Positions 20,793 to 34,157 of a stretch of 47,723 nt of DNA are shown here, in pieces (within the stretch, counting starts at the first letter, position 1; every line of letters begins with the position of its first letter). Origin of the DNA: Actinomycetes bacterium (GTDB taxonomy: Bacteria > Actinomycetota > Acidimicrobiia > Acidimicrobiales > JAMCQF01); contig JAJZBS010000011.1 in NCBI GenBank assembly GCA_021851885.1, positions 1 through 47,723 on the forward strand. Reading direction: 5' to 3'. The notes beneath the pieces are model-generated. The model worked only from the letters and a program-made list of their open reading frames with translations, had not been told where the DNA came from and made no database searches. Made by a program: the position numbers and the translations under genes.

Positions 20793-22478
20793 TCAGGTTT
20801 CGCCGGAGGTGTGCGTCACAGTGCGCGTGACGCGATCGCGAAGCGGTACCCCGTCCCGACCGACACGCGCAACCGACGCGTGAGCGCCCTGGGTGGGCTG
20901 GGTGCTTCCCCCTGCCTGGGTGCTTCCCCCTGCCTGGGGGGCCCTTCCGGCCAGGGGCTGCGGCGTGGCGGACACGGGGATGCGGACCCAGAAAAGTGTC
21001 TCGGGTGCCCGTGCCCGCAAGGCGGCGCCCCCGGTCGCTGCATCGCCATGCGACCCCACGGCAGCCATGGTGGCGTCGGGCCGCGTGTCGACGCCGACGG
21101 AGCCCCCATGCGCGCGAACGATTGCCGCGACGATCGCAAGACCCAATCCGGTTCCACCGGTCGAGCGAGCTCGCGACGGGTCAGCTCGCCGAAACGGTTC
21201 AAAGATCCGTGCACGGTCTTCGGGCGCGATCCCCGGCCCTCGGTCGGCCACTTCCAAGACCACGTGGTCCGGCTCCCGCTGGACGCGCACGACGACGGGC
21301 GTCCCCGGCGGGGTGTGCTGCAACGCATTCGTCACGAGGTTGTCGATGACACGACGGAGCCGGTTGGCATCGCCGATCACCGTCGACGCGCGCGGGTCTT
21401 CTGGCACCTCCACCGTGATCGGATGGGACGTCGCTTCACTCTGGCCGGCGCGAGCCGCGTCGACAGAGGTCGTTGCCACCTCCGCGATGGCGACCGGCTG
21501 CAAGTCGAGGGGCCTTTCCCGGTCGAGGCGCGCGAGCAGGAGGAGCTCCTCGACGAGCTCTGCCATCCGATCGGCCTCCGCGCGGATGTGGTGCATCGAC
21601 ATCTCCAGGTCCTCCGGCTGTGCCGCCGCGCCCCTGTCGAACATCTCGGAGAAGCCGCGAATCGCCGTGAGCGGGGTGCGGAGCTCGTGGGACGCGTCGG
21701 CAAGGAAGCGCCGCAAACGCGCCTCGGAGGCAGCCCGTGCCGCAAAGGCCTCTTCGATCTCACCGAGCATGGAGTTGAGGGCCGAGCCCAGCCGACCGAC
21801 CTCGGTGTCCGGATGGTCCAGTTCGATCCTCTGAGAAAGGTCCCCTCCGGCAATCGTGTCTGCGGTCTCGGCGATCTCCTCGAGGGGCCTGAGCCCGTGG
21901 CGCACCGCCCACCACGTTAGCGCTCCCAAGGCCAGGATCACGCCGAGCGAGACAAGCAGCTCGACGAGGAAAAGGTCGTGCAGCGTGGCATTCTGAGACG
22001 TCAGAGGGATAGCGATGATGACGGTGCCACCCTGTGCCGTCAGAGGGATGGCAAAGACCCGGTAGGACACCGACCCGCCCGATGTGGCCGTGAAGTACTC
22101 GCCGTCGGCCGGCGACGCTCCCGAGCCGGGCAGCTTGGTCGGGAGATTCGGCTGGGGGGGCGCGGCACCGCCAAAGGTGAAGAAGTCCGTAGCGACGACC
22201 TTGCCCGAGGCGTCCCGCAGCTCGCCGAAGGTGCCCGGCGGGACAAGGTTGCCGGGGCGGACTCCCCGGCCGACACCGAAAGGTTGCCCGCCCGACGACG
22301 CCTCGCCCGCGGTCGCAAGGAGCGCGCGCGTCACAGGGCCCGTCGCGCCTTGGAGCTGGCTGTCCAGCTGGCTCGTCAGGTCCGAGCGCAGCGACGTGAA
22401 GGTGAAGACGTCGGAGACGAGGAGGCCCGCGGCGACCAGGCTGATCAGTACCAGGACCAGCCGGAGGCGGAGGGTCAA
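20793..22478 (-). CDS. OmpR-family partner sensor histidine kinase (HAMP-HisKA-HATPase)
   Basis: FLADASHELRTPLTAIRGFSEMF H box, NLVTNALQHT N box, DRGPGIAPEDRARIFEPFRR, GTGLGLAIV. Confidence 0.95.
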   Translation of the reverse strand: MTLRLRLVLVLISLVAAGLLVSDVFTFTSLRSDLTSQLDSQLQGATGPVTRALLATAGEASSGGQPFGVGRGVRPGNLVPPGTFGELRDASGKVVATDFFTFGGAAPPQPNLPTKLPGSGASPADGEYFTATSGGSVSYRVFAIPLTAQGGTVIIAIPLTSQNATLHDLFLVELLVSLGVILALGALTWWAVRHGLRPLEEIAETADTIAGGDLSQRIELDHPDTEVGRLGSALNSMLGEIEEAFAARAASEARLRRFLADASHELRTPLTAIRGFSEMFDRGAAAQPEDLEMSMHHIRAEADRMAELVEELLLLARLDRERPLDLQPVAIAEVATTSVDAARAGQSEATSHPITVEVPEDPRASTVIGDANRLRRVIDNLVTNALQHTPPGTPVVVRVQREPDHVVLEVADRGPGIAPEDRARIFEPFRRADPSRARSTGGTGLGLAIVAAIVRAHGGSVGVDTRPDATMAAVGSHGDAATGGAALRARAPETLFWVRIPVSATPQPLAGRAPQAGGSTQAGGSTQPTQGAHASVARVGRDGVPLRDRVTRTVTHTSGET

Positions 22479-23215
22479 GCCGGTCTCTCCTTGAGTGGGC
22501 GCAGCACGTAGCCGACCCCGCGGACGGTGTGGATGAGCGCCGGCGCACTTCCGTCGACCTTGCGCCGCAAGTAGCTGATGTAGATCTCCACCACGTTGGC
22601 GTTCCCGTCGAAGTCGTAGCTCCAGACCCTGTCGAGGATCTGCGACTTCGAGACCACCCGACCGGCGTTGAGCATCAGGTAGTGCAGGAGCTTGAACTCG
22701 GTCGGGGTCAAGTTCACCACGGCATCGGCGCGGCGGACCTCGTGGCTGTCCTCGTCAAGCTCGAGGTCGCCGACGACGAGCCTGTTGTCCTGATCAGCCC
22801 CGTGAACCCGGCGCAAGACGGCCCGCACCCGGACGATGAGCTCCTCGACGCTGAATGGCTTGGTCATGTAGTCGTCGCCACCGAGCGTGAAACCGCGCAG
22901 CTTGTCGTCGAGCGTGTCGCGCGCGGTCAGGAACAGGACGGGAAGCGATCCGGCACGACGGTCCGCGCCCAAGCGATCGAGGACCTCGAATCCGTCGAGA
23001 TCGGGGAGCATGACGTCGAGCACGACGAGATGAGGACGAAAGGAGCCCACGGCCTCGATCGCGGCACGGCCTTCGTGGACGACCTTCACGTCGAAGCCCT
23101 CGTAGCGCAGAGCCATGGCGAGAAGATCGGTGATGCTGACCTCGTCGTCGACGACGAGTATGCGAGCCGACCGGGCGGTGCCCGCGTCGGTCAAGCGGGG
23201 GTTTGGTGCGGGCAT
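22475..23215 (-). CDS. OmpR/PhoB family response regulator
   Basis: ILVVDDEVSITDLLAMAL, LVVLDVMLPDLDGFEVL, FTLGGDDYMTKPFS, winged-helix C-term DSHEVRRADAVVNLTPTEFKLLHYLMLNAGRVVSKSQIL; 4-nt overlap with HK. Confidence 0.95.
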   Translation of the reverse strand: MPAPNPRLTDAGTARSARILVVDDEVSITDLLAMALRYEGFDVKVVHEGRAAIEAVGSFRPHLVVLDVMLPDLDGFEVLDRLGADRRAGSLPVLFLTARDTLDDKLRGFTLGGDDYMTKPFSVEELIVRVRAVLRRVHGADQDNRLVVGDLELDEDSHEVRRADAVVNLTPTEFKLLHYLMLNAGRVVSKSQILDRVWSYDFDGNANVVEIYISYLRRKVDGSAPALIHTVRGVGYVLRPLKERPA

Positions 23216-23258: not shown

Positions 23259-24137
23259 CTACCTGTGAAAGTGACTCCGAGCCTGAGAGTTGGCTGTGAC
23301 ACTTTGCCTCGCCGAGATGGAACTGCCCGGCACAACGGCGCCGGGCGCCGGAGCGCGTGCCGGCGACGGCCGAGTTCGGGCAGCGACCGTGACAACGAAG
23401 ACGACCGCCGCGGCGGCGGTACCTGCGCTCCACCCCCCGACGGCTCCCGTCGCGGCCACCACCACTGCTCCTTCAACGATAGAGATGGCGACGCGCGACG
23501 GACCGGCAAGCGACGAAAGACGCCGGTGGAACGAGACCAACCGGGCCGGCGACGTGATGCCGGCGCCGAGGAAGATCGCCAGGCCGCGCACGAGCCCGAA
23601 GACGACGCCAATCGACAGCGCCGCTGCGCTCGACCCGCTCAGCGCGGAAAGGACGACGGTCAGGTAGGTCCCTGCCGTCATGACGTAGGTGGCAAGACCG
23701 GACCCGATCTGCCAGCCGAAGCCGGAGCCGTAGACCCAAGGCCGGTAGAGGTCGAGCCAGTCCTCGTTGACCTGGCGCCGATGGATCGGGAGCCGGAGCC
23801 CGAAGAGCTCGAGATCGAATGCCCAGGCCGCGCACGCCGCGCACGCCGCCGCCGCGAAAGCGACCGTCGCTCCGCCGTGGGCCGGTGGTGCCAGGCCGAC
23901 CGCCGAGGCGCCGATCTCGGCGATGACGGCGACGAGCCCGAGGCTCGCTCCCCCGAGCAAAGCTCCGGCAACGAACCATGCCGCGGTGGCCGCGAAATGG
24001 TGACGACGCCCTCGCTCGGCAAGGGGTGTCATGGTCGACAGGATCGACAGGCCACACGGTGACCAGGTCGAACGGAGCGCTGCTGCGCAGGAGACCGCGG
24101 CTGCGAGGCCGACAAGGCCCTCCTGTGACGAGATCAT
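23259..24137 (-). CDS. polytopic membrane protein of the mau-like cluster (possibly MauF/CcdA-superfamily-like)
   Basis: Multiple TM segments; STWSPCGLSILSTMTPLAERGRRHHFAATAAWFVAGALLGG resembles CcdA/MauF-type SPCG..S motifs; ATGA overlap with preceding gene. Confidence 0.6.
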   Translation of the reverse strand: MISSQEGLVGLAAAVSCAAALRSTWSPCGLSILSTMTPLAERGRRHHFAATAAWFVAGALLGGASLGLVAVIAEIGASAVGLAPPAHGGATVAFAAAACAACAAWAFDLELFGLRLPIHRRQVNEDWLDLYRPWVYGSGFGWQIGSGLATYVMTAGTYLTVVLSALSGSSAAALSIGVVFGLVRGLAIFLGAGITSPARLVSFHRRLSSLAGPSRVAISIVEGAVVVAATGAVGGWSAGTAAAAVVFVVTVAARTRPSPARAPAPGAVVPGSSISARQSVTANSQARSHFHR

Positions 24138-24634
24138 CGAGAACCCCCTCCTCGGCGAGGCGCCACCGGGAAGGTGGCGGAGACGCGCACCGCCGACAGC
24201 AACCGGTTTGCCTCGCTCGCCAAGACATGGCGCAACCCAAAGCTGCCGATGACGACATACAGGCACAACGCCCTTTTCGCCGTCACGAAGAACGACTGGC
24301 AGCCGGCCTGTCCGGGCAGGTTCCGCTGGAGCGCGTTGGGGCGGAATTCGCCGCCGCTAAGCGGCCAGGGCACGCGCCTCTCGGAGAACAGAGCGGTGTG
24401 TGCGGCCTCGACGTCGTGCTCGAGCAGGGCGACGAAGACGCCGCGCTGGCCCAGCGTCTCGACCGTCCCTCCGCCATAGTCGCCCCGGTTCCGCGCCAAC
24501 GGCACGTTGGCGGCGTGCAGGATCGGCATGGTCACCTCGCCGCGGACGGCGTCTGGTTCGCGCCGGTATATCTCGGCCTCCCAGCCGGCCGGCACCTCGA
24601 CGGACAGGCCGAAGGCTGCGACGGTCGCCGTCAC
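24134..24634 (-). CDS. hypothetical protein in mau-like cluster
   Basis: 166-aa ORF, stop/start 4-nt overlaps on both sides; no motif recognised. Confidence 0.65.
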   Translation of the reverse strand: MTATVAAFGLSVEVPAGWEAEIYRREPDAVRGEVTMPILHAANVPLARNRGDYGGGTVETLGQRGVFVALLEHDVEAAHTALFSERRVPWPLSGGEFRPNALQRNLPGQAGCQSFFVTAKRALCLYVVIGSFGLRHVLASEANRLLSAVRVSATFPVAPRRGGGSR

Positions 24635-25482
24635 CGCGCCTCGTCCATACCGTCCCGCTCGCCGGTCACCGCCCCTTGTTGGGGCCGGCCCGGGTAGAGG
24701 CTCGGATCACCGGGATAGATCCCCGCCGCAGCAAGATCGGCGTCGGCCCGTGTCGCGCGTTCGGCCCCATTGAGATGTGCCCGGTCATGTCCGGCACCAC
24801 CGTGGCGCGGGCCGGCACGGTCGGTCGTGTGCCCGTCGGCATCCGCAACGTCGGCACCCGCAACGTCGTCAGCGGCGAACGAGGCGTCGGCCACGGCCCG
24901 CTGCAGCAGCGCGACGACCTCCTCCCACAGCGGTGCGGACCCCTCCCCCGCGACCGTTCCCGACGGTCCGTCGACCAGCACGAAATGGGGGCCACCAGGG
25001 ACGCCGTAGTCGCGGAAGGCCTCCGTCGACATGACGGTCACGACGTCGCCGGGCGCGATTGACGCGACCGCAGACGGGCTCTCGGCCTCGGGGCCACGGG
25101 TCACGGCGACGAGGCGCGTGTGGGGCCCGAGGTCGCGTGCCCCACCGTTGGCGAAGGCCTCCCAGAAGCCCGCGCACGACGAACAGCCACTCGACAGGAA
25201 GGCGAGCAGCGTGGAGTGACGCACCCCGCTCACGGCGACGGCCACAGCCGAGCCGGTGGGGCTCACGCCGTTGAGATCGTTTGCAACCGCACGCGTCGCT
25301 GCGCGAAGCCGCCTTCCCGTCGGGGCGCGTCCACCACGGTCCGGAGCAGAGGTGGGCTCGTAGACGCCGGCGCCGAGCTCGTGCAGCCGGCGCAGCACCT
25401 CGCCGTGGCTGCGCAACAAACCGACGACGAGGACGGCGAGCAGGGCGACAACGACGGTTTCGACCACTACGAGCGCCAGCAC
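24631..25482 (-). CDS. MauD-like membrane-anchored thioredoxin-fold protein
   Basis: N-term TM VLALVVVETVVVALLAVLVVGLL; LLAFLSSGCSSCAGFWEAFANGG (CxxC), VTVMSTEAFRDYGVPGGPHFVLVDGPSGTVAGEGSA (cis-Pro region). GTG start at 25482 chosen because of an upstream AAAGGA SD. Confidence 0.75.
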   Translation of the reverse strand: MLALVVVETVVVALLAVLVVGLLRSHGEVLRRLHELGAGVYEPTSAPDRGGRAPTGRRLRAATRAVANDLNGVSPTGSAVAVAVSGVRHSTLLAFLSSGCSSCAGFWEAFANGGARDLGPHTRLVAVTRGPEAESPSAVASIAPGDVVTVMSTEAFRDYGVPGGPHFVLVDGPSGTVAGEGSAPLWEEVVALLQRAVADASFAADDVAGADVADADGHTTDRAGPRHGGAGHDRAHLNGAERATRADADLAAAGIYPGDPSLYPGRPQQGAVTGERDGMDEAR

Positions 25483-25513: not shown

Positions 25514-27097
25514 TCATCCGCGGTCTCCACCCGCCGGGAACGGCGTGGGAACGTCGAGCTTCGCACACCCAATCGGCGATTCCGGCATCCCACCCGCCGC
25601 AACCGCGACCACACACACGTCGTGGACACCGGCAGCCGTCGCGACCACGACATCGAAGCCGTGCGCGGGCCCGAACGCCGGAAATGCCTTTGCGACGTCG
25701 GGCCGGTCGACGTCGGCGAGGACACGCGTCGCGAATACCCCGTCGACGGTCACGAGGACCTCGATCGGCTGGGGGGTTGCCGGGTCGATGGCCCACCCGG
25801 CGACCCGGAGCACGCTCCCCTCAGCGGAGGCACTGTCGAGGTTGCCGAAGGGGGCTCCACAGCTCAGGGTGGCACAGGCGAGTCGGGTGGGCTCCCCGAG
25901 GCCGGCGTTGAGAGCCGTGACGCAGACGTCGTGGACTCCGCGCGGAACGGGGACCACGGCGTCGAAGCCATGGGCCGGCCCCATCGTGGGGAACAGGGCA
26001 CCCACATCGGGACGAGCGACAGACGCGGCAATGCGCGCGGCGACGGCGCCGTCGATCGTGACTTGGATCGTGACGGGGTCCGTCGTGTCCGGATCGATCG
26101 CCCATCCCGCGACACGCACGTCCAAGGTGTCCGGCGCGACGGCGATCACGTCGAGGTGGCCGAACGGGTCGTGGGGGGCGACCGTCGCGCATCCCAGAAG
26201 CACGTTGCCCGGGCCGAATGCGACGTTGACCCCCGTCGCGCACACGGCAAACCCCTCGATTGTGTCCGGCGTCACGGGCACGACGTTCGTAAAGCCATGG
26301 TCGGAGCCGTAGCCGGGGAGGAACGCGCCGACGTCGGGCCGGTTGGAAGAAGCGGACAACGTTGCCGCCTGGGCGCCTGCAACCGATATCTGGACGTCGA
26401 TCGGTGCCGGCGTGTCGAAATCGACCGCCCAACCGGACACGGCGATCCCGCCGGCGACCTGCGTGGCCGAGTCGAGATGGCCGACGACGGCGTGCAAGCA
26501 CGGAGCGTCGTGGGTCGCGGTGGACTCGTCGGTCTGGGCCGTCGTGGTGCACGTGGGTTCGATCTCCCATGGAGGGATGCATGCCACCACCCGGCACACG
26601 ATTGGACCCAGGCAAGGGATCTCCTGGTTGCATTGGCCGTAGCGGAACTCGTTGCAGCCCGTCGCCCGGAGCCCGCAGTCATCCTCAGCGCAACCGCATC
26701 CCGTCCCGGAGCAAGAACCGGGACACACACCGCTCGATCCACAGCCGCAGTCGCCACAGGTGGCGTTGCAGTCCATGTAGTAGCGCGGACCCGCGCAGAA
26801 CTGCGTCCCGTCTGCCTTCCACCACCCGGCCATGACGGTGCCCGTGGGGCAGGCGTTGTACCCCGTCAGGGTGCAGCAGAACTCGGTGTAGCCGTCACAG
26901 CACATCGCGCCGCATCCGCACAGAGCGCCATGACAGTTGCACACCGCGCCATAGGCATCGCCCGGCTCGAGAGCGTAGGTGAGGGGCTCGAGCGCGAGTG
27001 CGGTTGCCGTGACGACTGTCCGCCCGAGGAACCCCCGACGGGTCACCCGGGGGAGCGAACCCGCAAGAGTATCGACGGCACCCGACAGAAAGCTCAT
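25514..27097 (-). CDS. Tat-secreted Cys-rich methylamine-dehydrogenase-light-chain-like protein fused to three C-terminal GWAxDPD repeats
   Basis: Tat motif TRRGFLGRTVVTATALA; CCTLTGYNACPTGTVMAGWWKADGTQFCAGPRYYMDCNATCGDCGCG ... FRYGQCNQEIPCLGPIVC resembles MADH small subunit; then three units GHLDS..VSGWAVDFDT / FGHLDV..VAGWAIDPDT / FGNLDS..VAGWAIDPAT. ATGA overlap with MauE-like gene. Confidence 0.75.
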   Translation of the reverse strand: MSFLSGAVDTLAGSLPRVTRRGFLGRTVVTATALALEPLTYALEPGDAYGAVCNCHGALCGCGAMCCDGYTEFCCTLTGYNACPTGTVMAGWWKADGTQFCAGPRYYMDCNATCGDCGCGSSGVCPGSCSGTGCGCAEDDCGLRATGCNEFRYGQCNQEIPCLGPIVCRVVACIPPWEIEPTCTTTAQTDESTATHDAPCLHAVVGHLDSATQVAGGIAVSGWAVDFDTPAPIDVQISVAGAQAATLSASSNRPDVGAFLPGYGSDHGFTNVVPVTPDTIEGFAVCATGVNVAFGPGNVLLGCATVAPHDPFGHLDVIAVAPDTLDVRVAGWAIDPDTTDPVTIQVTIDGAVAARIAASVARPDVGALFPTMGPAHGFDAVVPVPRGVHDVCVTALNAGLGEPTRLACATLSCGAPFGNLDSASAEGSVLRVAGWAIDPATPQPIEVLVTVDGVFATRVLADVDRPDVAKAFPAFGPAHGFDVVVATAAGVHDVCVVAVAAGGMPESPIGCAKLDVPTPFPAGGDRG

Positions 27098-27606
27098 CGC
27101 CGCGCCGCCGCAAGTGTCGCCGGCAGCGTCGTCATGACCACGACGACGAGCCACGCCGCCACGGCAATGGCAATCGCCTCGGGGACACCCGCGTACGGCA
27201 GGCGCCACCACCCCCCGATCGCACCGGGTGCACCGGTCGCGGCCGCCGCGGCACCGGCAGCGCAACCGCCGAGATCGACCGCGACGTGGAGGGACGACGG
27301 CGGGGTGGATCGGCTCCCAAAGCATCCGCAGGACCGTTCCGGAGCCGTCCGGCGCAATCGGAGGCTCGCGATCGCAAAGACGAGGTAGACGCTTGCGAGA
27401 GCCGCGGCGAGAAGGCGGCCCGCCGACAGCACGGTCGCGGCGCCAAGGCCTATCTCTGCCGCACCGAGCGTCCGGGCTGCGGCCGGAGTCGAGCCCAGCC
27501 ATAGGGCGCGAAGCATGTCCTCGCTTGATCGTGGGTCCGCGATCTTGAATGCGCCGCTCACCACGAGGACGATCGCCATAACGGCGAGCGGTCCGAAGGC
27601 CGTCAT
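27094..27606 (-). CDS. MauE/DoxX-family redox-associated membrane protein
   Basis: LAVMAIVLVVSGAFKIADPRSSEDMLRALWLG, AAEIGLGAATVLSAGRLLAAALASVYLVFAIASLRLRRTAPERSCGCFGS. Confidence 0.75.
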   Translation of the reverse strand: MTAFGPLAVMAIVLVVSGAFKIADPRSSEDMLRALWLGSTPAAARTLGAAEIGLGAATVLSAGRLLAAALASVYLVFAIASLRLRRTAPERSCGCFGSRSTPPSSLHVAVDLGGCAAGAAAAATGAPGAIGGWWRLPYAGVPEAIAIAVAAWLVVVVMTTLPATLAAARR

Positions 27607-30034: not shown

Positions 30035-30319
30035 GTGGTCGACGTGCTCCGTCTCGGGCTCAGCGTTCTGTTGGTCGTCGCTTTGGCGACCGTCGTCGCG
30101 TACGTGCTCGCATTCTTCGCCTTGGCCGCTTGGACCCTGATCCGCGGCTCCCATGCAGACCCCCTGGCAGAGGAGCTCGACAGCGTCCTTGACGAGATCC
30201 TCGCGCCGGCCGCGCCCGCCGGAACAATTCTGCGGCATGCCCCCGCATCGTCGGCGCGGCGCGGACGGCGCGAGCTTCGCCTGAGCCAGCGTGCTCGCCA
30301 TTTCCAGAAAGGACTGTGA
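30035..30319 (+). CDS. small single-TM protein leading the cupredoxin/NrfD operon
   Basis: MVDVLRLGLSVLLVVALATVVAYVLAFFALAAWTLI; stop overlaps next ATG (TGATG). Confidence 0.6.
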   Translation: MVDVLRLGLSVLLVVALATVVAYVLAFFALAAWTLIRGSHADPLAEELDSVLDEILAPAAPAGTILRHAPASSARRGRRELRLSQRARHFQKGL

Positions 30320-30972
30320 TGGGCGATCCGATACAGACAGGGACCGAACCCACAAGGTATGCCGTCGGCATTGCGACCTTGCTCGGAGGCATCGTCCTTG
30401 GACTCGGTCTCGTCTTCGGGATGGCGGCGGGAGTCGGCGCCATCTGGTCGTCCGTCACGGCATCGGCGACACCGTCGGCGTCGAGCAGCTCAGGCGGGGC
30501 CGCACCGAACGGCGCCTCAGGCTCTGCGGCTGCGTCGAATACAGGCATGAGCTCGATGAACCAGAGCGGCGCTTCGTCCGCAACGGGTTCGGCACCGGCC
30601 GCCGGCGCCGCGTCGGCAGGTGCCGTCCAGGACGTCTCGCTCGTCGTCGATCCCCCGCCGCTCGGCGGCCGGAAAGGCCCTGACGGACATGTCTACGATG
30701 CCTTCGTCCCCGCGACGTTCTCCATGAAGGTCGGCGTGACCGTCAAAGTCACGGTCCTCAACTACGACACCTTGCCCCATACCTGGACGTCCCCCGGTCT
30801 CGGCGTCAACACGATGGTGCCGGCCGGATCGTCGACATCGCCAAGCCGGACCACCTTCACGATCCACCCCACGAAAGCCGGCACTTTCTCTTGGTACTGC
30901 GCCACGCCGTGCGATTCGTTTGCCATGAAGACGAACGGCTTCATGCGGGGCACCGTGACGGTGACGGCATGA
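30319..30972 (+). CDS. membrane-anchored cupredoxin-domain protein (1)
   Basis: TM then low-complexity Ala/Ser linker; FSMKVGVTVKVTVLNYDTLPHTWTSPGLG ... GTFSWYCATPCDSFAMKTNGFMRGTVTV. Confidence 0.8.
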   Translation: MGDPIQTGTEPTRYAVGIATLLGGIVLGLGLVFGMAAGVGAIWSSVTASATPSASSSSGGAAPNGASGSAAASNTGMSSMNQSGASSATGSAPAAGAASAGAVQDVSLVVDPPPLGGRKGPDGHVYDAFVPATFSMKVGVTVKVTVLNYDTLPHTWTSPGLGVNTMVPAGSSTSPSRTTFTIHPTKAGTFSWYCATPCDSFAMKTNGFMRGTVTVTA

Positions 30973-31703
30973 GCGGATCAGCCAAGCACCGTCGCTCGCC
31001 CGCGGCGACGGCCGCCAACCTGGGCGAGCACCTACTCGCCGGCCTCGACCATCTCGGACAACCGGTCGTACGCCGTTCCATCTCGCGCTTCGCCCGCTCC
31101 GTCGGCATCGTCGGCGCCACTCTCGCTGTCATCTTCGCAGGCCTCGCCGTCACCGTCGCGGCGGTCGCCGGGATCGCGCAGGGTGTCAGCACCGCGTCAG
31201 GCCACCTTGCCGCGTCAACCCGTCCTCTGACCGGCGGCCCTCCCGTGACCGAGTCGATGGAGATCCTCACGGGCAAGATGGACGGGCGTTCCGGTTGGCC
31301 CCGTTACACGAACGCCTCCTGGTCGGTGCACGCAGGCCAGTCGGTCACGATCAAGATCACGAGCTACGACGACGGCACTGCCCCACCCATGGGCTCCCAG
31401 GCCATGTACAACACGGTCGAAGGCACCGTCGGCGGCACGGAGACCGTCGACGGACGCACCATCCGGGGTATGCCGACGGAGGACGTCGCCCATACCTTCA
31501 CGATCGTCGCCCTGCGCCTCAACCTGCCTATTCCGGCAGCTCCTACCGGCGGGAGTGTCACCGTCGTCGCCCGGTTCGTCCCAAAGGTCACCGGCGTATT
31601 CATGTGGCAGTGCTACGCGCCGTGCGGTTCGGGCAAGAACGCGATGGGCGGGGCGATGTCGACCATGGGATGGATGGAGGGAAAGGTCACGGTGTCCGCA
31701 TGA
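30969..31703 (+). CDS. membrane-anchored cupredoxin-domain protein (2)
   Basis: TM; SWSVHAGQSVTIKITSYDDG ... VAHTFTIVALRLNLPIP ... GVFMWQCYAPCGSGKNAMGGAMSTMGWMEGKVTV. ATGA overlap. Confidence 0.75.
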   Translation: MSGSAKHRRSPAATAANLGEHLLAGLDHLGQPVVRRSISRFARSVGIVGATLAVIFAGLAVTVAAVAGIAQGVSTASGHLAASTRPLTGGPPVTESMEILTGKMDGRSGWPRYTNASWSVHAGQSVTIKITSYDDGTAPPMGSQAMYNTVEGTVGGTETVDGRTIRGMPTEDVAHTFTIVALRLNLPIPAAPTGGSVTVVARFVPKVTGVFMWQCYAPCGSGKNAMGGAMSTMGWMEGKVTVSA

Positions 31704-32617
31704 ACGACGAACCGCAGCCGCCGAACTCGGGCAAGGACGGCCCCCCCGCCGCAACCGAGACCCAGAGCGAGCCCCAGGAGACCTCCGGCCCCGCACGCAT
31801 CGAGCGGCGGAGCTTCCTCGGGCGCGCCGTCGTCGGAGGAGTGGGCGTCACCGCCCTCGGAGCTCTCGCCGAGCGCCTGTTCGCAACTCCCGCACCGGCC
31901 GGAGCCTCCCCGACGAAGGCAGGTTCCTCGGCACCGACCGCGAGCTCGAGCGGCCAGGCCGACCACCAGTGGGCCATGGTCATCGACCTGCGCTACTGCA
32001 ACGGCTGCAAGCTCTGCACGGCTGCGTGCCAGGCCGCTCACTACCTACGCCCTGAGCAGACCTGGATAGACGTCTTCACGATGCGCACGGCCGAGAACAA
32101 GACCTACTCCATGCCACGGCCCTGCATGATGTGCGAGGACCCGCCGTGCGTTCCCGTGTGCCCGGTGAGTGCCAACGTCCGCACGAGCGACGGGCTGACC
32201 CTCGTCGACCAGTCCCGTTGCATCGGCACGCGCATCTGCATGAACGCCTGCCCCTACGAGGCCCGCTACTTCAACTGGTCAGACTCGCGCTCCGTGCCGC
32301 GCCAACCCTTCCCCCAGGAACCGGAGTGGCCCGTCCCCCAGCAAAAGGGCACCGTCGGCAAGTGCATCTTCTGCGCGGCGATGCTCCCTTCCGGACAGGT
32401 GCCCGAATGCGTTGCCGACTGCCCCATGGGCGTCCTCTACCTCGGGGACATCGTGCGCGACGTCGCCGTGAACGGCTTGGGGAACACGGTGACGTTGTCG
32501 ACCTTCCTCAAAGAGAACGACGCTGTCCGCTTCAAAGAGTCCTACGGGACAAGCCCGCGGGTCTGGTACATCCTCGGCCACGGCCAGGACCTCGAATCCG
32601 ATACGTCGGCAAGCTGA
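31700..32617 (+). CDS. Tat-exported multi-cluster 4Fe-4S protein, NrfC/PsrB/DmsB-like
   Basis: ERRSFLGRAVVGGVG Tat signal; CNGCKLCTAACQAAH, CMMCEDPPCVPVCP, CIGTRICMNACPYEARYFNW, CIFCAAMLPSGQVPECVADCP. ATGA overlap. Confidence 0.93.
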   Translation: MNDEPQPPNSGKDGPPAATETQSEPQETSGPARIERRSFLGRAVVGGVGVTALGALAERLFATPAPAGASPTKAGSSAPTASSSGQADHQWAMVIDLRYCNGCKLCTAACQAAHYLRPEQTWIDVFTMRTAENKTYSMPRPCMMCEDPPCVPVCPVSANVRTSDGLTLVDQSRCIGTRICMNACPYEARYFNWSDSRSVPRQPFPQEPEWPVPQQKGTVGKCIFCAAMLPSGQVPECVADCPMGVLYLGDIVRDVAVNGLGNTVTLSTFLKENDAVRFKESYGTSPRVWYILGHGQDLESDTSAS

Positions 32618-32630
32618 GGAGGCTGGGGCC

Positions 32631-34157
32631 ATGGACGACGGAATGGAACGAACCGCAATCGACGGTCGCCATCTGCGCTCGGCCGCCATGCGCCCGATCA
32701 TGGAGACACCGCGCTGGTGGTGGCCGGCGGTCCTCGCGCTGGGTGCCGTCGTCGTGGCCGGCGTGGTCGCCTGGGCTGTCCAGCTCGGAGACGGGTTGGG
32801 CGTCGCGGGATACAACGACAATGCCTTTTGGGCCGTCTACGAGGCGGACCTCGTCGCCTTCATCGGCGTGAGCTACGGCGGGGCCGTCGTCTCGGCCATC
32901 CTGCGCCTGACCAACGCTCAGTGGAGGGCGCCGCTCACCCGGATCGCCGAGGCGACGGCACTCGTCACGCTGCCGATCGGCATGCTCTTCATCATCCCCC
33001 ACCTGGGGAGCCCACAGAAGATCTGGGAGCTTATCTGGCCGCCGTACTGGAACCTCTCCTCCCCCATTCTCTGGGACTTCTTCGCAGTGAGCACCTACCT
33101 GCTCGCGACGATCGTGTTCTTCTACCTCCCGCTCATTCCCGACCTCGCGACGTGCAGGGCGTACCTCGACGACCCGAACAACGCCCGCACCGGCGACTCG
33201 CTCGGGCTCGGGAGCATCGCCGGGCTGCGTGCCCGGATGCGCAACGCGCGGCTGCGGACCGCACGCACCCTCTACCGGATCGGGGCGGGTCGTTGGACAG
33301 CGACGAACACCCAGCGCCGTCTGCTGCACGGGTCGATCGGCCTCGTGGCGATCATGGTCATCCCGATGGCGGTCTCGGTGCACTCGGTCCTGTCGTTCGC
33401 CTTCGCGTCGTCGAGCAGAGCCGGCTATCTCGAGACGATCCTCCCGGTCTACTTCGTGGTGGCCGCCCTCTACTCGGGGGTCGCGCTCGTGGTGCTCACC
33501 GTCGCGGCCGCACGCAAGCTCTACCACCTCGAGCCTTACATTCACCGCCGTCACTTCGTCCGGCTGGGGTTCGTTCTCGTCGCCTTCGGGGCCGCCTACC
33601 TGTACCTCACCTTCACGGAGTACCTCATCGACGGGTACTCGGGGGCGCAGGGCAACGCCGCGTGGGTTCGCCAGATCATCGTCGGCCGGTACTGGGTCCC
33701 ATTCTGGATCTACTTCGTCGCCGCAGGCCTCATCCCGCTTCTCATCGTGGCGGTCAAGCGTTTGCGCACCATGAACGGCGTCGTCGTCGCATCGGGACTT
33801 GTCGTCGTCGCCATGTGGATCAAGCGGCTCGTGATCGTCGTGCCGCCCGCCTCTGAGCCCCTTGTCCGTTCCCCGTTGACGTCGTCGGGCTTCTTGTCGG
33901 GAGACTGGGGCACCTACCACTTCACGTGGGTCCCGATCGCCATCACGCTCGCCGCGACGGCCGCCATCCCGCTCTTGCTCCTTGTCGTCTTCCGCTTCGT
34001 GCCAATCCTTCCGGTCGCCGAGATCGAAGAGATGTCAGAACAGCACGGGAGCACGAACGGGAACGGCGCGCTGGATGCGCTCGAAGTCACCACACCCAAT
34101 GCCCGCCTTGACGAGCGGCAGCCCGTCGGAGCCGGCGACGAGATCGGGAGGTCCTGA
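32631..34157 (+). CDS. NrfD/PsrC-type membrane quinone-interacting subunit
   Basis: ~8+ TM; GYNDNAFWAVYEADLVAFIGVSYGGAVVSAILRLTNAQWRAPLTRIAEATALVTLPIGMLFIIPHLG and WPPYWNLSSPILWDFFAVSTYL. Confidence 0.93.
   Translation: MDDGMERTAIDGRHLRSAAMRPIMETPRWWWPAVLALGAVVVAGVVAWAVQLGDGLGVAGYNDNAFWAVYEADLVAFIGVSYGGAVVSAILRLTNAQWRAPLTRIAEATALVTLPIGMLFIIPHLGSPQKIWELIWPPYWNLSSPILWDFFAVSTYLLATIVFFYLPLIPDLATCRAYLDDPNNARTGDSLGLGSIAGLRARMRNARLRTARTLYRIGAGRWTATNTQRRLLHGSIGLVAIMVIPMAVSVHSVLSFAFASSSRAGYLETILPVYFVVAALYSGVALVVLTVAAARKLYHLEPYIHRRHFVRLGFVLVAFGAAYLYLTFTEYLIDGYSGAQGNAAWVRQIIVGRYWVPFWIYFVAAGLIPLLIVAVKRLRTMNGVVVASGLVVVAMWIKRLVIVVPPASEPLVRSPLTSSGFLSGDWGTYHFTWVPIAITLAATAAIPLLLLVVFRFVPILPVAEIEEMSEQHGSTNGNGALDALEVTTPNARLDERQPVGAGDEIGRS

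What the first reader, a model, noticed from the sequence alone, without database searches (positions are those of the whole stretch)
26498..26965. Light-chain-like domain appears to lack the second TTQ tryptophan and is extremely Cys-rich
By-eye count gives 26 Cys between residues 51 and 200 of the protein starting at 27097, about double what MADH light chains carry. The region aligning to the first TTQ Trp keeps Trp (AGWWKADG), but the region aligning to the second (Paracoccus ..DIIWCFGAED..YHCTISPIVG) reads CNEFRYGQCNQEIPCLGPIVC, with no Trp. Only three Trp occur in the domain (92, 93, 177). If the alignment holds, TTQ cannot form in the usual way, so either another Trp/Tyr cross-link or a non-catalytic Cys-rich electron-carrier/structural role is implied.
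Basis: partly seen in the sequence, partly recalled or inferred. Interest (0 to 1): 0.75.

Follow-up and report, generated by a model that had tools for sequence, protein, structure and literature searches.

The report
Cysteine-rich protein with mau folding genes
A widespread but unnamed family of exported, disulfide-packed proteins in Actinomycetota sits beside the genes that fold the small subunit of a known amine-oxidising enzyme, yet it cannot make that enzyme's tryptophan cofactor, so the folding genes appear to have a wider job than was known.

Summary
It belongs to an unnamed family found in 86/395 genomes of its class and 30/397 of its phylum. In 126 distinct members W92 and W93 are invariant. 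No register of the second TTQ tryptophan carries a conserved Trp, and W177 is not invariant. MauG is absent from 22 of 24 carriers. Usual TTQ is therefore excluded with good confidence. The important discovery is the operon: MauE-like, this protein, MauD-like, a new 166-aa protein, and a MauF homolog, found near essentially every copy with enough flank. Cys counts are even in 111/126 members and C75-C200 are co-lost, which points to full disulfide pairing. C-terminal modules are swapped between members (GWA-D, LGFP, ricin-like, FG-GAP-like, or none). Best reading: a Tat-exported, disulfide-armoured, mostly wall-displayed binding or structural module folded by MauD/E/F, with the quinone chemistry absent. 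Homology to the MADH light chain is likely from synteny and signal peptide but marginal by sequence, and AlphaFold failed on it (pLDDT 33). MauDEF clusters without this family carry other Cys-rich Tat proteins.

The parts
27094..27606 (-). MauE/DoxX-like membrane protein; overlaps the next gene by ATGA
   Evidence: PF07291 E 1.7e-14; iterated profile recovers Paracoccus MauE at 1e-26
25514..27097 (-). the 527-aa protein: Tat signal, Cys-rich domain, three C-terminal repeats
26951..27097 (-). long n-region Tat signal (TRRGFLGR), same layout as the MauA precursor (TSRRSVIGK)
   Evidence: sequences; RR motif in 132/137 members
26498..26950 (-). Cys-rich domain, residues 50-200, 26 Cys
26819..26824 (-). 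W92-W93, invariant in 126/126; the position like the first TTQ Trp
26630..26656 (-). C148-NE-FRYG-Q-C156, invariant FRYG; region like the second TTQ Trp, no Trp
26567..26569 (-). W177 (CxPPW), Trp in 107/126 members only
26873..26875 (-). C75, inferred disulfide partner of C200
   Evidence: co-lost in L030, L048, L064, L069
26498..26500 (-). C200, inferred disulfide partner of C75
25517..26497 (-). C-terminal region with three ~100-aa 'GWAxDxDT..RPDV..HGF' repeats; other members carry unrelated modules here
   Evidence: comparison
24631..25482 (-). MauD-like membrane-anchored thioredoxin-fold protein (CSSC); GTG start inferred
   Evidence: blastp to Paracoccus MauD E 7e-6; iterated profile 6e-46
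24134..24634 (-). 166-aa protein without signal peptide or known family, always beside the Cys-rich gene; GTGA overlap with MauD-like gene
   Evidence: model pLDDT 87, only weak fold neighbours
23259..24137 (-). MauF homolog (WSPCG motif), ATGA overlap with the 166-aa gene
   Evidence: 29% identity over 201 aa to Paracoccus MauF, E 1e-19; alignment

Best explanation
The protein is the substrate of a mau-type oxidative folding cassette that lacks the quinone enzyme. Steps inferred: the precursor is exported by Tat; MauD-, MauE- and MauF-like membrane proteins oxidise its many cysteines into about 8-14 disulfides; the 166-aa soluble protein probably helps as a dedicated cytosolic partner. The result is a very stable extracellular domain, in most members tethered to wall or surface by a swappable C-terminal module. 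TTQ is not made. The invariant W92-W93 / N81 / R105-Y106 / D109 / F151-R152-Y153-G154 / R169 set most likely forms a binding or structural site. Shown here: gene content and linkage, Trp and Cys conservation, parity and covariation of Cys, absence of MauG in most carriers, exchange of C-terminal modules. Inferred: disulfide state, folding by MauDEF, surface display, binding role.
For: Core, E, D, 166-aa and F genes are found together in essentially all loci with enough flank, over three dozen loci from many families; the few gaps are contig ends or, in G190 and G004, a MauF copy elsewhere in the genome. All 30 core-positive genomes of 397 are also MauF-positive. Even Cys number in 111/126. C75-C200 co-lost in four lineages with different replacements, C53-C62 and C55-C67 co-vary. 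No MauG in 22/24. Modules: LGFP (PF08310), GWA-D, ricin-like, FG-GAP-like, or none. MauE has been proposed to form disulfides in the MADH beta subunit, as reported in PMC7794033 citing van der Palen 1997.
Against: Disulfides are not observed directly. The conserved non-Cys residues could mean catalysis. Sequence homology to the MADH light chain is marginal. The structure prediction failed. The MauB search had no positive control.
Confidence: 0.62

Rival explanations
1. An active redox enzyme with another protein-derived cofactor: W92 or W93 is cross-linked to Y153, Y106 or a Cys by an unknown maturase, replacing TTQ.
For: W92, W93, Y106, D109 and Y153 are invariant over 126 members. The Tyr-x-Asp-Cys element resembles MADH YRDC around its catalytic Asp76 (residue role from own knowledge; alignment). 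MauD/E/F are kept.
Against: No MauG in 22/24 carriers. No conserved oxidase, radical SAM or cytochrome gene in the cassette. Even Cys counts leave no spare Cys for a Cys-Trp link in most members. Swapped C-terminal modules do not look like a fixed heavy chain.
Confidence: 0.12
2. Not a MADH light-chain relative at all: an independent Cys-rich Tat protein that uses the same MauD/E/F helpers.
For: Profile comparison is only marginal. Other MauDEF clusters carry a different Cys-rich Tat family that shows no similarity to light chains beyond chance.
Against: CPxGT-x4/5-W and YxDC elements, Cys spacing before the first Trp and the Tat signal match MauA and the Thermomicrobium proteins. Score exceeded 148/150 column shuffles in the smaller alignment.
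Confidence: 0.35
3. Ordinary TTQ protein with W177 as second Trp.
For: W177 is Trp in 107/126 members.
Against: W177 is replaced in 19 members, lies beyond the C-terminal end of the light chain in the alignment, and MauG is missing in most carriers.
Confidence: 0.03

Closest known systems
Methylamine dehydrogenase light chain, MauA (TIGR02659, PF02975)
   Same: Tat signal of the same layout, Cys-rich domain, CPPGT...W and YxDC elements, MauD/E/F in the cluster
   Different: 26 against 12 Cys, no second TTQ Trp, no detectable MauB or (mostly) MauG, C-terminal surface modules, no PF02975 match
Thermomicrobium roseum plasmid light-chain-like genes (L033)
   Same: Same neighbours: MauE, MauD and a MauF-like gene downstream; CP[PS]GT and W elements
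   Different: They keep a Trp directly before the later Cys (NWC), so a TTQ pair is possible; annotated as methylamine dehydrogenase light chain
Streptomyces MauE/MauD clusters with Cys-rich precursors proposed as RiPP candidates (PMC7794033)
   Same: MauE (one with MauD) beside a gene for a protein of at least 8 Cys, no other mau genes
   Different: Described there as candidate modified peptides; no MauF or 166-aa protein reported; sequences not compared here
Second Cys-rich Tat family beside MauDEF in Actinomycetota (e.g. L181:4774-5370)
   Same: Tat signal, one invariant Trp, MauD/E/F neighbours, no second TTQ Trp
   Different: 10 Cys, other sequence, no 166-aa partner, no C-terminal module in the copies examined

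Membership tests
MADH/AADH light chain (TTQ proteins) | Matches PF02975 / TIGR02659 | tested here: not met
   No match at E<=1; PF02975 above cut-off in 0/297 phylum genomes
MADH/AADH light chain (TTQ proteins) | Both TTQ tryptophans | tested here: not met
   First kept as W92/W93; no conserved Trp in any register of the second, 126 members
MADH/AADH light chain (TTQ proteins) | MauG for TTQ completion | tested here: not met
   PF03150 in 2/24 carriers, absent in G000; control genomes rang
MADH/AADH light chain (TTQ proteins) | Heavy-chain partner MauB | tested here: inconclusive
   PF06433 in 0/24, but no control rang; none in the cassette
MADH/AADH light chain (TTQ proteins) | Sequence/profile homology | tested here: inconclusive
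   hhalign E 0.004-0.036; between 2/150 and 7/100 full-column shuffles scored as well
MADH/AADH light chain (TTQ proteins) | Fold | tested here: inconclusive
   AlphaFold2 model pLDDT 33, unusable
mau maturation cassette (MauD, MauE, MauF) | Homologs of all three in the operon | tested here: met
   MauE PF07291, MauF E 1e-19, MauD E 7e-6, iterated profiles
mau maturation cassette (MauD, MauE, MauF) | Tat-exported Cys-rich client | tested here: met
   RR motif 132/137; 16-28 Cys; export itself not tested

The most novel reading that the evidence does not exclude
The invariant W92-W93 together with Y153/Y106 or a Cys forms a new protein-derived cofactor, made without MauG, in a secreted redox module whose anchoring domain is exchanged between species.
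Probability: 0.1. Interest if true: 0.92.

Novelty: new variant of a known kind. Interest (0 to 1): 0.6.

Why it matters
What MauD, MauE and MauF do has been hard to separate from TTQ formation, because in methylotrophs they occur with MauA, MauB and MauG. Here the three are retained, strictly linked to a Cys-rich Tat client, where the quinone machinery is gone, so their folding role can be tested alone. It also reveals an unnamed five-gene system in about a fifth of sampled genomes of one class, with a wholly new 166-aa component, and at least one further MauDEF-linked Cys-rich family.

Tried and rejected
PDB sequence searches with single sequence and profile: nothing. PF02975 scan of 297 genomes: one weak sub-cut-off stretch. 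Viral contigs: none. Plasmid collection with the core: none. In-frame TGA in L070-L073 looked like recoding but is the normal stop after the domain. Blast hits of MauA to L182/L187 looked like bridging light chains but lie in the signal peptides. The second family compared with light chains or with the core: no better than shuffles. hhalign with other settings gave up to 94% probability, but only the default and the shuffle test were trusted. Fold search of the 166-aa model: best E 0.008, PsbP/DcrB-like neighbours, not significant.

Full report
Check. The protein runs from 27097 to 25514 on the minus strand. Residues 51-200 contain 26 Cys and three Trp (92, 93, 177), exactly as reported; the Paracoccus light chain has 12 Cys.

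Family. A genome-contig scan gave 14 homologs, and whole-genome searches gave many more: 30 of 397 sampled Actinomycetota genomes and 86 of 395 genomes of the class; the named contig records are Acidimicrobiales and other Actinomycetota assemblies. After collecting loci, 126 distinct domains were aligned. Twelve Cys positions plus N81, P84, G91, W92, W93, R105, Y106, D109, F151, R152, Y153, G154 and R169 never vary. No Pfam, NCBIfam or PDB sequence matches the domain. The Pro_Al_protease hit is below its cut-off and lies in residues 201-230.

TTQ. In MADH the second Trp stands directly before a Cys (IIWC; in the Thermomicrobium relatives NWC). Three registers are possible in this family. Before C148 stands mostly Cys or Gly; before C156 Gln, Asn or Arg; before C162 a variable residue. 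One member, L167, has Trp before C148, but its nearest relatives have His and Tyr, so it is not conserved. W177 is Trp in 107 of 126 and is replaced by Tyr, Cys, Val or Ser in others. MauG was found in 2 of 24 carriers and not in this genome, with positive controls. MauB was found in none, but that search had no positive control. Usual TTQ is excluded with good confidence.

Operon. Upstream is a MauE-like gene (PF07291). Downstream are a MauD-like thioredoxin protein, a 166-aa protein of no known family, and a MauF homolog (29% identity over 201 aa to Paracoccus MauF, E 1e-19). E/core, D/166 and 166/F overlap by four bases. The same five genes are found near the family gene in essentially all loci with enough flank (iterated profiles); gaps are contig ends, and in G190 and G004 a MauF copy lies elsewhere. 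The iterated profiles recover Paracoccus MauE, MauD and MauF at 1e-26, 6e-46 and 3e-51. All 30 core-positive genomes of the 397 sampled are MauF-positive.

Cysteines. The number of Cys is even in 111 of 126 domains, over counts from 16 to 28. Where C75 is lost (four sequences from four families, replaced by Val, Ser, Ala, Ala) C200 is lost as well; C200 is also lost alone in two near-identical sequences, which then have an odd count. C53-C62 and C55-C67 also come and go together. This is what full disulfide pairing predicts. Relatedness of sequences means the counts are not independent, so no formal probability is claimed. C200 lies in the extension beyond the light-chain end, so the disulfide map cannot be identical to that of MADH.

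C-terminal modules. After the domain, members carry GWA-D repeats (this window), LGFP repeats (PF08310), 'GGIFAFGDA' repeats, FG-GAP-like repeats, ricin-like repeats, or nothing. LGFP and ricin-type modules bind wall or sugar in known proteins (own knowledge), so surface attachment is inferred.

Is it a light chain? For: the CPxGT...W and YxDC elements, the long Tat signal, and MauD/E/F. Against or open: profile comparison is marginal. With 58 sequences the score beat 148/150 column shuffles and 150/150 shuffles with Cys fixed. With 126 sequences 3/100 and 6/100 shuffles were as good. The AlphaFold2 model failed. Membership is therefore not claimed, since both Trp and MauG are defining and not met.

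Wider pattern. MauF also occurs in 32 genomes without a detected core gene. Of 20 such loci, one (L198) holds a truncated core at a contig end. Of the other 19, 16 match a second Cys-rich Tat family by pattern and L180 fits it by eye; L197 has a third Cys-rich Tat protein (TIGR02659 E 2e-5, below cut-off, partly in the signal); L189 showed none. In several of these clusters E and F, or D and E, share one reading frame. A published Streptomyces survey noted MauE/MauD genes beside Cys-rich precursors and argued they do not serve methylamine metabolism (PMC7794033). Together this suggests MauD/E/F are a general oxidative folding set for Tat-exported Cys-rich proteins, with TTQ enzymes as one case. 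This generalisation is inference.

The 166-aa protein. Its model is good (pLDDT 87), but the best fold matches are not significant (E 0.008, PsbP/DcrB-like neighbours including an effector chaperone). It has no signal sequence and is strictly linked to this family, so a cytosolic partner of the Tat client is a guess worth testing.

Noticed in passing
L180-L197, L199 (e.g. L181:4774-5370 +): A second unnamed Tat-exported family (AYHICGHTYTTGSCPHP...GGGWxRCC...DCC...RINGD...GYC...VFC), 10 Cys and one invariant Trp, beside MauD/E/F; in several clusters E+F or D+E are fused in one frame.
   Followed up: partly
L197:3635-5143 +: Third Cys-rich Tat protein next to MauD/E/F-like genes, with weak TIGR02659 similarity and a long C-terminal extension that looks like a cell-wall-binding repeat.
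   Followed up: no
L033:717-8687: Thermomicrobium roseum plasmid: several light-chain-like genes that keep both Trp, large hypothetical proteins between them, and a MauE fused to a long N-terminal domain.
   Followed up: partly
window 30316-34157: Separate + strand redox cluster: cupredoxin-like, COX2-like, 4Fe-4S ferredoxin-like and NrfD-like genes; no evident link to the cassette.
   Followed up: no
window 25517-26497: Three GWAxDxDT...RPDV...HGF repeats that no Pfam family above cut-off covers.
   Followed up: no
window 20793-23215: Response regulator and histidine kinase genes directly downstream of the MauF-like gene on the same strand; conservation of this pairing not tested.
   Followed up: no
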